Of a stretch of 38,432 nt of DNA, positions 8,121 through 34,435 are shown piece after piece. Source of the stretch: Clostridia bacterium. GTDB taxonomy: Bacteria > Bacillota > Clostridia > Lachnospirales > Anaerotignaceae. Under the pieces are notes generated by a model. That model was not told the DNA's origin, ran no database searches, and worked only from the letters and a program-made list of their open reading frames with translations. The stretch lies in NCBI GenBank assembly GCA_029098265.1, contig JAQXNZ010000085.1:1-38432 (forward strand), read 5' to 3'. Position 1 is the first letter of the stretch, and the number at the start of each line of letters is the position of its first letter. The position numbers were made by a program, and so were the translations under genes.

Positions 8121-8145
8121 GGGGGTGTCGCAAAACCGACACCCC
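8121..8145 (+). terminator. Hairpin downstream of the FMN-binding-like gene
   Basis: Perfect 9-bp stem GGGGTGTCG/CGACACCCC (8122-8130/8137-8145); weak T-tract on + strand, but A4 upstream gives TTTT on the minus strand. Confidence 0.55.
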
Positions 8146-8149
8146 GAGA

Positions 8150-8464
8150 ATGTCGACGAAGTCGACACTAAGTCGAAAACAGGTTTTCGACTTGTTTAAA
8201 TTAATGCATGAATGGCTATTCCATCGGCCGCTGGCCTTGAAACACGCCATTCTCCTCGGCCGGTATCACTTTGCTTGCAAAGCGCCCACTTGTGGGCGGC
8301 GGCACGCTGATATGTACGCGGTCTCTATAGCGGGTTCACAAATTCCCTTCGGGAACACCTAATGGTGCCGGAGTATATTCTTCCGGTTTGCTTTCCTGCG
8401 GATTAAACTTGGAAAACTCTTCGTTTTCCAAACCTTTCCGCGAAAAAAATTTGTCTGCAATCTG
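8150..8464 (+). repeat. Modular hairpin-rich dispersed repeat, copy A
   Basis: Head TGTCGAC-GAA-GTCGACA plus AAGTCGAAAAC-AG-GTTTTCGACTT (8170-8193); GTTTAAATTAATGCATGAA; stem GAATGGC/GCCATTC (8210-8216/8246-8252); TTGGAAAAC-TCTTC-GTTTTCCAA (8409-8431); 3' end AATTTGTCTGCAATCTG. Confidence 0.9.
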
Positions 8465-17569: not shown

Positions 17570-17576
17570 CCAAAAA

Positions 17577-17608
17577 CCTCTCTTTCTTCGTGAAAGAGAG
17601 GTTTTTTT
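17577..17608 (+). terminator. Intrinsic terminator of the TlpA-like lipoprotein gene (possibly bidirectional)
   Basis: CCTCTCTTTC/GAAAGAGAGG perfect 10-bp stem plus T7 (17602-17608); A5 at 17572-17576. Confidence 0.9.
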
Positions 17609-17610
17609 AG

Positions 17611-17844
17611 AGTGTCGACAAAGTCGACACTAAGTCGAAAACAGGTTTTCGACTTGTTTAAATTAATGTATGAAGTCCTGACACTGCGCACAGCTTGTGT
17701 CTTAGGACTTCTCCGAGGTGAAGAGCGCGGTCTCCACCTCGGTTTAAAGCCTCAGAAAACCTTCCCGGTTTTCCGAACCTTTCCCGGTTATTGTAGCTAA
17801 TATCGGGTAATTTCAAATAATTAGTTTAGTTTGTTTATATTCTG
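17611..17844 (+). repeat. Modular hairpin-rich dispersed repeat, copy B
   Basis: AGTGTCGAC-AAA-GTCGACACT (17611-17631); AAGTCGAAAAC-AG-GTTTTCGACTT (17632-17655); stems GAAGTCCT/AGGACTTC (17672-17679/17704-17711) and CCGAGGTG/CACCTCGG (17713-17720/17735-17742); GAAAACC/GGTTTTC (17755-17761/17767-17773); end AGTTTGTTTATATTCTG. Confidence 0.9.
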
Positions 17845-25619: not shown

Positions 25620-27167
25620 TTATTTTTCAAGTCCGGAAAAATATTCCGCTATAACTTCCTTCATTCCGTAGGGTATGTTTCCGCTTTCTGTTTCCTTTAG
25701 TGCCTGTTCCTTATAGTCGCCCACTACTGCGTCATAGGGTACGCTCTGTCCGTTTACTCCGCCTGCTTTTGTCTCGGAGTAGGTCACATTTCCCTCGTCC
25801 GTCTGCTGTGACTGAAGCTGTTGTTCCTCTACGTCCATACCTTCCGCATTTCTTGTATATACCTTTTCAGGCTCTGCATGTCCGAAGCCTCTGCCGCTTC
25901 CGCCTGCGCCGCCGCCTGTTCCGCCCGAACCGTTTCCGTTGCCGTTTCCGTTGCCCTGACCACTTCCGTTTCCGCTGCCGCTGCCCGAGCCGCTTCCGTT
26001 TCCGTCACCGCTGTTATTGCCGCTTCCTGAGCCATCCTTATCGGAGCTGCTTGAAGAACTCTTGGAATTAGGCGTGCTTGTGGCTGTTTTGCCCGTTCCG
26101 TCGCTCGCCTTTGCCAATGATGAAGCCGTTCTCGAGCAGGCAGATGACGAAGCCGAGCTCTTGCTCATGGCTGCCTTAGCCGCCGATGATAAAGATGAAG
26201 CAGTCTGTTCAGCGTCTCCCGCCTCTGCGGCCTTTTCAGCCTCCTCCAGAAGTTCCTGCAATTCTTCATCGCTCATTTTGTCCGCCAGCTCACCGAGCTG
26301 TTCAGCCAGCTCCTTTAGCTCCTCCTCACTCATAGAGCTTATTTCCTCAGACATTTTTTTCAAAGCCTTTGCCAGTGCTTCGGAGCTGTTCAAATCAAAG
26401 GCCGCCGAAATATCTTTACCCGCCGCAAAGTCCGAAAGCATGCTCTTTATGCTGTTTTTGTCATTCGAGGCCTTGTTTTCAAGCTTTTTAAGCTCCTGCT
26501 GGGCATTGTTTATAAGCTTTTTTGCTTCCTTGGAGTCCTTGGCAGTTTTAAGATTTTTGTTCAGCTCTTTAAGTATTTTGTTATACTCCTCCTTAAAGTT
26601 CTCCGAAAGCTTTTCATCATTATTGACGGATTTCTTTATTTCCTCGGCTTCCTTCAGGGCGTTCTGTGTCATGCTCGAGAGCTCATACACACCCGCATCG
26701 GGAGCAAAACCCGTCAGGCATGATGCCGCCAGCATTACAGCCGTTATGACTGCCAGCTTTTTAGGAAATGTTATCCTGTATTTCTTATCCAGTCCCGCAC
26801 CCTTGGCGCTGTTGACGGCATCTTTGACAGCCAGCTGTTCCATGGCTGTTTTTTCACCGTCAGCAGACAGAATGCCGTAGGCGGTAATAAGCCTTTCGTC
26901 GCATCCGAGCCTGTCGCCCTCAGCCGCCGCATCATAGTCAGTCACCCTATACCTGACAAGGGCAAGGAACAGACCGACAGCGGCTGATATAACCAGTACG
27001 GCTGTGCACATCAGCATCTTGTAGGGCACATACACAAACTTGGAAAACAGCAATATGAAGAACACAACTGCCGCACCCACTGACACAGTCTGCAAAACTC
27101 TCAATATTATATTGTTAAGGGTTATTTTTTTCTTAAGCGGTCTGAGCAGTCTTTTAAGCTCCTTCAT
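25620..27167 (-). CDS. Two-TM protein with long coiled coil, Gly/Ser/Asn low-complexity tract and conserved-looking C-terminus
   Basis: N-terminal TM pair; KEAEEIKKSVNNDEK...; SGSGNNSGDGNGSGSGSGSGNGSGQGNGNGNGNGSGGTGGGAGG; end KETESGNIPYGMKEVIAEYFSGLEK. Confidence 0.7.
   Translation of the reverse strand: MKELKRLLRPLKKKITLNNIILRVLQTVSVGAAVVFFILLFSKFVYVPYKMLMCTAVLVISAAVGLFLALVRYRVTDYDAAAEGDRLGCDERLITAYGILSADGEKTAMEQLAVKDAVNSAKGAGLDKKYRITFPKKLAVITAVMLAASCLTGFAPDAGVYELSSMTQNALKEAEEIKKSVNNDEKLSENFKEEYNKILKELNKNLKTAKDSKEAKKLINNAQQELKKLENKASNDKNSIKSMLSDFAAGKDISAAFDLNSSEALAKALKKMSEEISSMSEEELKELAEQLGELADKMSDEELQELLEEAEKAAEAGDAEQTASSLSSAAKAAMSKSSASSSACSRTASSLAKASDGTGKTATSTPNSKSSSSSSDKDGSGSGNNSGDGNGSGSGSGSGNGSGQGNGNGNGNGSGGTGGGAGGSGRGFGHAEPEKVYTRNAEGMDVEEQQLQSQQTDEGNVTYSETKAGGVNGQSVPYDAVVGDYKEQALKETESGNIPYGMKEVIAEYFSGLEK
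25905..26030. repeat. Low-complexity GC-rich hexamer-like tract inside the 25620..27167 CDS
   Basis: Repeated cttccgtttccg / ctgccgctgccc units encoding (G-S/N-G)n. Confidence 0.75.
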
Positions 27168-31643: not shown

Positions 31644-31672
31644 AAAAATCCCGGCTCTTCCAAAGAACCGGG
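31644..31672 (-). terminator. Terminator hairpin following repeat copy C
   Basis: CCCGGCTCTT/AAGAACCGGG (31650-31659/31663-31672); minus-strand T-run from A5 at 31644-31648. Confidence 0.8.
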
Positions 31673-31673
31673 T

Positions 31674-31945
31674 CAGACTGTAAGCAAACTTAACTAATTA
31701 TTTTAAATTACATGATATTAGCCACAATAACCGGGAAAAGTTCGGAAAACCGGGAAGGTTTTCTGAGGCTTTAAACCACGGCAGAATTCACTTCTGCCGT
31801 GGAGAAGTCCTAAGACACAAGCCATGCGCAGTGTAAAGTGCAAACCGCGTGAAAGTCGCGACGCCGTAGGCGTTCCCGTAGGGAATTTGAGAACCTGTCG
31901 GACTTCATACCTTAATACATCAAGTCGAAAACCTGTTTTCGACTT
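31674..31945 (-). repeat. Modular hairpin-rich dispersed repeat, copy C (lacks the first GTGTCGAC hairpin)
   Basis: Minus strand: AAGTCGAAAACAGGTTTTCGACTT...; stems GAAGTCC/GGACTTC (31900-31906 and 31804-31810) and CCACGGCAGAA/TTCTGCCGTGG (31776-31786/31792-31802); GAAAACCTTCCCGGTTTTCCG; end AGTTTGCTTACAGTCTG. Confidence 0.88.
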
Positions 31946-31956
31946 AATCATAGTTA

Positions 31957-32895
31957 TTATACATTAGACATTATAAGCATTGTAAGCGGAATCAGCGTAA
32001 TTAATGACGCCGCAGTAGTCAATACAACGCACTTGGACGCAAACATATAGTCTGCATTATATTCCTGAGAGAAAATTACTGCCGCAGAACCTGTAGGCAT
32101 GGCCATCAATATAGTCATAACGCCGCTCATTTCATAACTCATTCTAAATATAAATACGCAGATAATATATGTTAAAATCGGTACAACAGCCATTTTAGCT
32201 ACAGTTATTATATATATTCTGACATCGGCAAATAAAGTGTTCATCTTTATTTTGCCTAAGCTGTATCCGATTATAAACATTGCAATAGGCAAACTTGCTC
32301 CGCCTATTTTATCAAAGGTATTGGTTATTATAAAAGGAAGCTTTATGTTGCAGAAGAAAAGCGCAAGTCCTATTACTATTCCTATAAAGCCGGGGCTCAA
32401 AATCTTTTTAGGTTCAATTCTTATTCCGTCTCTGCCGTTTTCTCCCGATAGCTGTATAAACACTATACCGACAGTAAATATAAGTATATCTACGGCAACC
32501 TCTACCAATCCGGCATAAAATACCGCTTCTTTTCCGAAAATAGTATTAATTATCGGTAAACCTATGCCGCCGGTATTAGCAAAAAAAAGGCAGAAAGCAA
32601 TTAAACATGTATAGTTTTTCTCCATCTTCAGTATCTTTCTGAGGCAATATGCAAGTACACATGTCAAGCAAAACACTGAAAAAGTAGAAAAGAGTATCTT
32701 AATTATCGCAGTCATATACCTTTTTTCAAAATCAATCTGCATGGAATTGATAATAAGCAGCGGAAGTACAACGCTCATTAAAAATTTGGACATACCCTTG
32801 CTTTGTTCCTCAGTGATTATATTTTTCTTTCCGAAAATAAATCCCGGTATCATAAGCAGGAATATTGTTATTAAAGCATAAAAAGCGTCTTTCAT
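31957..32895 (-). CDS. AEC family transporter (auxin efflux carrier type permease)
   Basis: About ten hydrophobic segments; FCLFFANTGGIGLPIINTIFGKEAVFYAG and TILMAMPTGSAAVIFSQEYNAD are AEC motifs. Confidence 0.9.
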   Translation of the reverse strand: MKDAFYALITIFLLMIPGFIFGKKNIITEEQSKGMSKFLMSVVLPLLIINSMQIDFEKRYMTAIIKILFSTFSVFCLTCVLAYCLRKILKMEKNYTCLIAFCLFFANTGGIGLPIINTIFGKEAVFYAGLVEVAVDILIFTVGIVFIQLSGENGRDGIRIEPKKILSPGFIGIVIGLALFFCNIKLPFIITNTFDKIGGASLPIAMFIIGYSLGKIKMNTLFADVRIYIITVAKMAVVPILTYIICVFIFRMSYEMSGVMTILMAMPTGSAAVIFSQEYNADYMFASKCVVLTTAASLITLIPLTMLIMSNV

Positions 32896-32916: not shown

Positions 32917-32947
32917 AAAGGGGAGTAGAATGGCTTCTTCCCTACAG
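32917..32947 (-). terminator. Left copy of a 31-nt direct repeat containing a terminator-like hairpin
   Basis: AAAGGGGAGTAGAATGGCTTCTTCCCTACAG; same as 33161-33191 except two mismatches, both in one stem arm. Confidence 0.8.
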
Positions 32948-33160
32948 ACTGTAGACAAACTAATTTTTCGTGCGGAAAGGTTTGGAAAACGAAGGGTTTT
33001 CCAAGTGGAATCCGCAGGCGGAATTCATTTCCGTCGAGGAGAATGGCATGTTTCAAGGCTTTTCATGTTTTTTGAAAAGCCGATGGAATAGCCATTCATG
33101 CATTAATTTAAACAAGTCGAAAACCTGTTTTCGACTTAGTGTCGACTTTGTCGACACTAT
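32948..33160 (-). repeat. Modular hairpin-rich dispersed repeat, copy D
   Basis: Minus strand: AGTGTCGAC-AAA-GTCGACACT (33138-33158), AAGTCGAAAAC-AG-GTTTTCGACTT (33114-33137), stem GAATGGC/GCCATTC with inner GGCTTTTCA/TGAAAAGCC (33057-33065/33073-33081), TTGGAAAACCCTTCGTTTTCCAA, end AGTTTGTCTACAGT. Confidence 0.92.
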
Positions 33161-33191
33161 AAAGGGGAGTAGAATGGCTACTCCCCTACAG
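33161..33191 (-). terminator. Right copy of the 31-nt direct repeat; probable original terminator of the PLP-enzyme gene
   Basis: Perfect stem GGGGAGTAG-AATGG-CTACTCCCC (33164-33186) with minus-strand TTTATA, 24 nt after the stop of 33215..34435. Confidence 0.8.
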
Positions 33192-33214: not shown

Positions 33215-34435
33215 TTAGTTATTGCCGTAAGCAACCTCAAGAGCGTTGAGAATATCAGCAACAAGTTCTTCTGTGTTCTCAATACCGATTGAGAATCTTA
33301 ACATAGAGTCTGTGATACCGATAGCATATCTCTGCTCTCTTGTAAGATTGTCGTGTGAGCTGTGAGGAGGATATGAGAATGTTGTTCTGTATCCGCCGAG
33401 TGTCATAGCGTAATGAGCAAGTTTGCAAGTTCTCATAAACTTGTTGAATTTGCTTGTAGGTGCATCGTAGTCTTCTTCTTCGGGAAGCTCGATTGTCATC
33501 ATTCCGCCGTAATGTCCGTTGAACTGAGCCTTAGCGAGTTCATGGTAAGGGCTGCTCTCTAATGAAGCATGGAATACGTTCTTAACATAGGGGCTCTTCT
33601 CAAGTGCTGCTGCAAGAGCCTGAGCGTTTTTGTCCTGCTGTTCAATACGAAGCTTCATTGTTCTCATACCACGGCATGTTAACCATGATGAGAAAGGATC
33701 AGCCTGTGTACCGAGAACTACCTGAATGTTATGGCATTTCTTAACGAGGTCAGCAGGTCCTACAATAGCGCCTGTAACTGCATCTGAATGACCGTTAGCA
33801 AACTTTGTTAAGCTGATAACTTCAAGGTCTGCACCGAGTTCAAGGGGTCTTGCAAGTGCGCCTGTCATGAATGTGTTGTCTACTACAAGGAGAGCGCCTA
33901 CAGAATGAGCGAGTTCTGAAAGAGCTTTAAGGTCAGCAACATTGCAAAGAGGGTTGCCAACTGTCTCTGTGTAGATAACTGCTGTGTTGGGTTTAAGATG
34001 AGCCTTAACCTCATCAAGGTTTGTGCAGTCGATAACTGATGTCTCTACACCGTATTTTCCGAGGATGTCTGTGAATACTTCGTTAGACTCTCCGTAGATT
34101 GTTTTATCTGAAATGATGTGATCTCCGGCCTTAGTTAAAGCGATGATAGCTGTTGAGATAGCAGCCATACCTGCTGAGCAAGAGATAGCTGCTTCGCCGC
34201 CCTCTGTGTAGGCAACAAGCTCTGCAAGTGCATTTCTGTTAGGGTTTCTGTTTCTGTTGTAGCAGTAATCTCCCTCTTTATATCTCTGAAGAAGGTCAGC
34301 AACATCCTCTACATTGTGGGCTGTTGACATATGGATAGGGAGTGCTTCGGGGTCACTTGCGGGATGTGAGAAATATGCGCCTGCTTCTAATACATTTGTC
34401 TCAAATGAGAATTTGGGATCAAGTTCATGTTTCAT
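33215..34435 (-). CDS. PLP-dependent Cys/Met metabolism enzyme (methionine gamma-lyase / cystathionine gamma-lyase family)
   Basis: ISCSAGMAAISTAIIALTKAGDHIISDKTIYGES, IYTETVGNPLCNVADL, VVDNTFMTGALARPLELGADLEVISLTKFANGHSDAVTG (PLP-lysine region), LRFSIGIENTEELVADI. Confidence 0.9.
   Translation of the reverse strand: MKHELDPKFSFETNVLEAGAYFSHPASDPEALPIHMSTAHNVEDVADLLQRYKEGDYCYNRNRNPNRNALAELVAYTEGGEAAISCSAGMAAISTAIIALTKAGDHIISDKTIYGESNEVFTDILGKYGVETSVIDCTNLDEVKAHLKPNTAVIYTETVGNPLCNVADLKALSELAHSVGALLVVDNTFMTGALARPLELGADLEVISLTKFANGHSDAVTGAIVGPADLVKKCHNIQVVLGTQADPFSSWLTCRGMRTMKLRIEQQDKNAQALAAALEKSPYVKNVFHASLESSPYHELAKAQFNGHYGGMMTIELPEEEDYDAPTSKFNKFMRTCKLAHYAMTLGGYRTTFSYPPHSSHDNLTREQRYAIGITDSMLRFSIGIENTEELVADILNALEVAYGNN

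What the first reader, a model, noticed from the sequence alone, without database searches (positions are those of the whole stretch)
32917..33191. Copy D is bracketed by a 31-nt direct repeat that is itself a transcription terminator
AAAGGGGAGTAGAATGGCTTCTTCCCTACAG (32917-32947) and AAAGGGGAGTAGAATGGCTACTCCCCTACAG (33161-33191) differ at two positions, flank the element exactly, and contain the hairpin GGGGAGTAG/CTACTCCCC. The right copy sits 24 nt after the stop of the PLP-enzyme gene. Either the element inserted at a terminator with a long target duplication, or the element carries or duplicates terminators. The mismatches lie only in one arm of the distal copy, as expected for decay of a redundant terminator.
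Basis: partly seen in the sequence, partly recalled or inferred. Interest (0 to 1): 0.82.

Follow-up and report, generated by a model that had tools for sequence, protein, structure and literature searches.

The report
Mini-transposon that duplicates terminator hairpins
A 217-base non-coding mini-transposon landed on the hairpin that ends transcription of a gene and copied that hairpin to both of its sides, which is the habit of a transposon family (IS1182) whose full-length members in related bacteria do the same thing.

Summary
The two 31-nt repeats differ at two positions and bracket element D; chance gives at most 24/31 matches. The element is a 217-bp MITE (32945-33161) with imperfect terminal inverted repeats. 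The repeat is a 27-28 nt target-site duplication of the PLP gene's terminator hairpin; the last 3 nt (CAG) of the left copy belong to the element.

This is the rule, not a quirk of D. Different MITE copies have different hairpins that match within a copy: 15 of 32 against 3 of 992 cross-pairs. Hairpins abut 59-66% of element ends against 2.8% of control windows. Full-length IS1182-family elements with the same ends exist in other Bacillota. In a genome of the window's own family, all 11 copies are flanked by palindromic direct repeats of 17-31 nt. So 'inserted at a terminator with a long target duplication' is supported, and 'element carries terminators' is rejected.

The distal copy in D has decayed, but distal decay is not a general rule. 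No IS1182 transposase was found in this draft genome. Palindromic targets are known for IS1182; IS1272 replaces the hairpin, whereas this group duplicates it.

The parts
32917..32944 (.). Left copy of the target-site duplication (27-28 nt): the PLP gene's terminator hairpin, distal to that gene, with two mismatches in one arm; followed on the minus strand by U6
32945..33161 (+). MITE element D, 217 bp, non-coding, many internal hairpins
   Evidence: ends defined by comparison with other copies and with full-length IS1182 elements
32945..32961 (+). Left terminal inverted repeat CAGACTGTAGACAAACT, identical to the left end of IS1182 elements in other Bacillota
33145..33161 (-). Right terminal inverted repeat, minus strand TATAGTGTCGACAAAGT; 14/17 as in the IS1182 element of locus L096 (CAGACTGTCGACAAAGT)
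33161..33188 (.). Right copy of the target-site duplication: perfect terminator hairpin next to the PLP gene; U-tract cut to UUU by the insertion
33215..34435 (-). PLP-dependent enzyme gene whose terminator was the target
31957..32895 (-). Downstream gene (312 aa, membrane protein, probably an AEC-type transporter), same strand
   Evidence: the family name is inference from the sequence
8147..8464 (-). MITE copy A, same family as D; a terminator hairpin (8122-8145) abuts its right end
17608..17844 (-). MITE copy B; a terminator hairpin (17572-17606) abuts its right end; no hairpin at the left end
31674..31946 (+). MITE copy C, right end truncated; a terminator hairpin (31650-31672) abuts its left end

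Best explanation
Element D is a MITE (non-autonomous miniature transposon) of the IS1182 family. An IS1182-type DDE transposase, acting in trans, recognised the element's ends and joined them to the two feet of the palindromic terminator downstream of the PLP gene, so that the whole hairpin (27-28 nt) was left single-stranded at each side and was copied by gap repair. The result is hairpin - MITE - hairpin. Shown: the direct repeat, its palindromy, the same arrangement at many other copies with a different hairpin each, matching ends on full-length IS1182 elements, and the same target duplication by those elements. Inferred: mobilisation in trans, joining at the feet of the hairpin, and whether the transposase reads an extruded cruciform or the palindromic double strand.
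For: Repeat is real. 57 matches to the D region in the genome and 41 and 48 matches in two same-genus genomes. 15 of 32 two-ended MITE copies (30 from this genome, 2 from G003) have a flanking repeat scoring >=12 against 3 of 992 cross-pairs; hairpin stems of score >=7 abut 59% (left) and 66% (right) of ends against 2.8% of control windows. Full-length IS1182 elements with the same 17-nt end and palindromic repeats: L096 (1565 bp), L141 (1744 bp), L179 (1741 bp). The L096 transposase scores 440 bits to NF033551 IS1182 (cut-off 270) and passes PF13751, PF05598, PF01609. In G024, same taxonomic family as the window, 11/11 copies of a 1484-bp IS1182 element have palindromic repeats of 17-31 nt, nine of them with no gap to either element end. 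Orthologous gene ends without the element have a single hairpin.
Against: No IS1182 transposase was found in this draft genome or the three same-genus genomes, so the mobilising enzyme is inferred from relatives; the assembly is broken at repeats (197 contigs), so one could be missing. No nucleotide-level empty site was available for D itself. About half of the MITE copies no longer show a clear repeat, which I ascribe to age and truncation.
Confidence: 0.92

Rival explanations
1. The element carries its own terminator hairpins at both ends, so the repeat is part of the element.
For: Most well-preserved ends in the genome have a hairpin next to them.
Against: The hairpin sequence differs between copies and matches only within a copy (15/32 against 3/992); 11 near-identical IS copies in G024 have 10 different hairpins (two copies share duplicated flanks).
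Confidence: 0.02
2. Two independent old terminators happen to flank the element and are similar by chance or gene conversion.
For: Tandem terminators exist in bacteria, and some older copies have unlike hairpins at the two ends (L024, L088).
Against: 29/31 identity against a null maximum of 24/31; palindrome boundaries coincide with element ends in copy after copy; orthologous unoccupied gene ends have one hairpin.
Confidence: 0.03
3. The mobilising enzyme is of another family that also duplicates palindromes, for example an IS30-type transposase like IS1630.
For: [quoted passage not shown]
Against: The MITE's left end is identical over 17 nt, and its right end 14-15/17, to those of IS1182 elements that show the same target duplication.
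Confidence: 0.05

Closest known systems
IS1182 family (NF033551), members with ends CAGACTGTAGACAAACT or CAGACTGTC
   Same: Same terminal inverted repeats, same palindromic terminator targets, same duplication of the whole hairpin
   Different: D has no transposase gene and is 217 bp, a MITE
IS1272 / TnSha1 of staphylococci (IS1182 family; PMC5678879, PMC4923244)
   Same: Targets hairpins, several shown to be transcription terminators, with no primary sequence consensus
   Different: IS1272 removes or replaces the hairpin and leaves no target duplication; here the hairpin is kept and duplicated. PMC5678879 draws hairpin duplication as a hypothetical pathway (Fig 13b)
IS1630 of Mycoplasma fermentans (IS30 family)
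   Same: Targets and duplicates inverted repeats; junction duplications of 16-26 bp (PMC3317919)
   Different: Different transposase family
Small interspersed repeats such as SPRITE, RUP and BOX of pneumococcus
   Same: Short, intergenic, many copies
   Different: SPRITE is itself terminator-like; here the terminators are target DNA outside the element (PMC10969869)

Membership tests
IS1182-derived MITE | Terminal inverted repeats shared with an autonomous IS1182 element | tested here: met
   Left 17/17, right 14/17 (D) or 15/17 (commoner MITE end) with L096
IS1182-derived MITE | No transposase gene, small size, multiple copies | tested here: met
   217 bp, no ORF listed in it, 57 matches to the D region in the genome
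IS1182-derived MITE | Target-site duplication of the same kind as the autonomous element | tested here: met
   Palindromic, about 20-32 nt in MITEs, 17-31 nt in IS copies
IS1182-derived MITE | Autonomous partner in the same genome (usual, not defining) | tested here: inconclusive
   No PF13751 or protein match in G000, but the draft is broken at repeats and MITEs can outlive their partner
IS1182-derived MITE | Actual mobilisation by the transposase | not testable with these tools
   Needs a transposition assay
IS1272-type hairpin replacement | Loss of the target hairpin and no target duplication | tested here: not met
   Hairpin present twice
IS1630 / IS30 | IS30-type transposase on elements with these ends | tested here: not met
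   The transposase found between these ends is IS1182

The most novel reading that the evidence does not exclude
A branch of IS1182, spread through Bacillota together with its MITEs, recognises transcription terminators by hairpin structure rather than sequence and duplicates the complete hairpin, so that insertion leaves gene ends with a terminator: a host-safe way of reaching high copy number.
Probability: 0.6. Interest if true: 0.55.

Novelty: new variant of a known kind. Interest (0 to 1): 0.45.

Why it matters
The best-described IS1182 relative, IS1272, destroys the hairpin it hits; this group keeps and duplicates it. In the published model the two outcomes differ only in which foot of the hairpin is joined, so a side-by-side test of the two transposases could show how a DDE enzyme reads a DNA hairpin. 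It also explains why these repeats sit after so many genes without obvious harm, and the palindromic duplications give each insertion a barcode usable to join contigs broken at repeats.

Tried and rejected
Rfam search of the window: no family, so not a described RNA element. PF13751 in the own genome: nothing. Exact-TIR search over 58 family genomes: only the own genome, so relatives carry variant ends. Empty site for D in the genus: PLP gene not conserved. Joined flanks of other copies against genus relatives gave no nucleotide-level empty sites, only position-equivalent gene ends. Orientation: among the 32 copies genes point into the right end only in 14 and into the left end only in 2, but 27 elements from other Bacillota show 9 against 8, so polarity is not a general property. 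'Distal copy decays' as a rule: proximal hairpin better in 5-7, worse in 3, not supported. An A-run beside the hairpin as a sign of terminator direction was dropped because these terminators often have both A- and T-runs.

Full report
OBSERVATION. The repeat is as described: 29/31 identical, 244 nt apart, mismatches at repeat positions 20 and 23. It is the strongest direct repeat of that length at short spacing in the window; 20 Markov windows of the same composition reached 21-24/31. The right copy is a perfect hairpin (minus-strand RNA -20.0 kcal/mol, no shuffle as stable); the left copy is a damaged one (-7.2 kcal/mol, z -1.1).

ANATOMY. Element D lies between two genes on the minus strand: the PLP-enzyme gene (33215-34435) upstream and a transporter-like gene (31957-32895) downstream. 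Its ends are CAGACTGTAGACAAACT (32945-32961) and, on the minus strand, TATAGTGTCGACAAAGT (33161-33145): imperfect terminal inverted repeats. No ORF is listed inside it; the region folds strongly (z -6.7) and matches no Rfam family. Because other copies also begin CAG, the CAG shared by the two 31-nt repeats is coincidence and the duplication proper is 27-28 nt. On the minus strand the insertion split the terminator: the gene-proximal hairpin keeps UUU, the distal one has U6.

GENOME SURVEY. The D region gives 57 matches in its own genome, and 41 and 48 matches in two same-genus genomes. There are two sequence types (like A/D and like B/C). Among 32 copies with both ends and flanks (30 from this genome, 2 from G003), 15 have a flanking direct repeat scoring at least 12; pairing the left flank of one copy with the right flank of another gives 3 in 992. 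The repeats are palindromes, for example AGGGGACTTTTTCAAAAGTCCCCT (L003), CAAGTTGAAATCCCTTAAGGATTTCAACTT (L022), AAAAGAGGAAAATCAAATGATTTTCCTCT (L083). Stems of score 7 or more abut 59% of left and 66% of right ends, against 2.8% of control windows. Several more duplications join contig ends, for example a 27-nt palindrome shared by contigs 174 and 53: the assembly broke inside MITEs.

AUTONOMOUS RELATIVES. Scanning for the exact left end found it next to hairpins in many Bacillota: 75 of 116 flanks have an abutting hairpin. Several loci are complete elements with a transposase and a duplicated palindrome: L096 (1565 bp, 21-nt exact repeat), L141 in Lysinibacillus fusiformis (1744 bp, 32 nt), L179 (1741 bp, 28 nt, transposase reading frame interrupted). 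The L096 transposase is IS1182 family by NF033551 (440 bits, cut-off 270) with PF13751, PF05598 and PF01609 domains. Its two ends match the MITE's left end 17/17 and right end 14/17 for D (15/17 for the commoner MITE end). In G024, a genome of the window's own family, 11 copies of a 1484-bp IS1182 element all have palindromic flanking repeats of 17-31 nt; nine have no gap to the element on either side. Two of the 11 share flanks through a duplicated region, so there are 10 independent sites. These are the cleanest evidence for the rule: near-identical element, different hairpin each time, hairpin at both sides.

EMPTY SITES. D's own locus is not present in the three same-genus genomes. For the MITE site L091, the orthologous gene ends in G001, G002 and G003 have one terminator hairpin and no element; for the G024 copy L255, seven same-genus orthologs lack the element, and most show a recognisable single hairpin after the gene. 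The hairpins themselves are not orthologous in sequence, so this is position-equivalent, not nucleotide-level, evidence. At the L080 site, G001 carries a different MITE-like element at the same gene end, also bracketed by a repeated hairpin (ACCCGGTTCCTAAAAGAAACCGGGT / ACCCAGTTCATAAAAGAAACCGGGT), suggesting that terminators are hit repeatedly.

MECHANISM. A DDE transposase that joins the element ends to the 5' feet of a palindrome would leave the whole hairpin single-stranded at both sides, and repair would duplicate it. This is the hypothetical pathway b drawn for stem-loop targets in PMC5678879. IS1272 itself follows another pathway in which the hairpin is lost and no duplication is made (PMC5678879; PMC4923244, where targets were confirmed as terminators by RNA-seq). 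Whether an extruded cruciform or the double-stranded palindrome is read is not shown here.

CONSEQUENCE FOR THE GENE. After insertion the PLP transcript still meets a strong hairpin, though with a shortened U-tract, then the MITE's own hairpins, then the second hairpin with the full U-tract but a damaged stem. Which one terminates cannot be told from sequence.

NOVELTY. Palindromic targets are known for IS1182 (Siguier et al., as cited in PMC5678879 and PMC4923244), and duplication of inverted repeats is known for IS1630 of the IS30 family (PMC3317919). From memory, not checked here, ISfinder lists IS1182 direct repeats as 0-60 bp. I found no held paper describing IS1182 MITEs or systematic terminator duplication by IS1182, but the library is partial. 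I therefore call this a new variant of a known kind.

Noticed in passing
window 8147-8464, 17608-17844, 31674-31946: All three other copies in the window also abut a terminator hairpin on at least one side.
   Followed up: yes
G000 contigs 174/53, 25/82, 57/157, 60/91, 11/37 (L017/L012, L086/L025, L016/L006, L077/L023, L039/L027): Target duplications match across contig ends, so the draft assembly is broken inside MITEs and could be scaffolded by them.
   Followed up: partly
L288, about 1301-1500: In G001 the gene orthologous to the L080 site carries a different MITE-like element in its terminator, with its own duplicated hairpin: recurrent hits on the same gene end.
   Followed up: partly
the 32 surveyed MITE copies: Genes point into the right end of the MITE only in 14 copies and into the left end only in 2 (sign test p about 0.004), a bias not seen in elements of other Bacillota (9 against 8).
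   Followed up: partly
window 25923-26012: Three imperfect 30-nt tandem repeats inside the minus-strand gene 25620-27167, coding a G/N/S-rich stretch.
   Followed up: no
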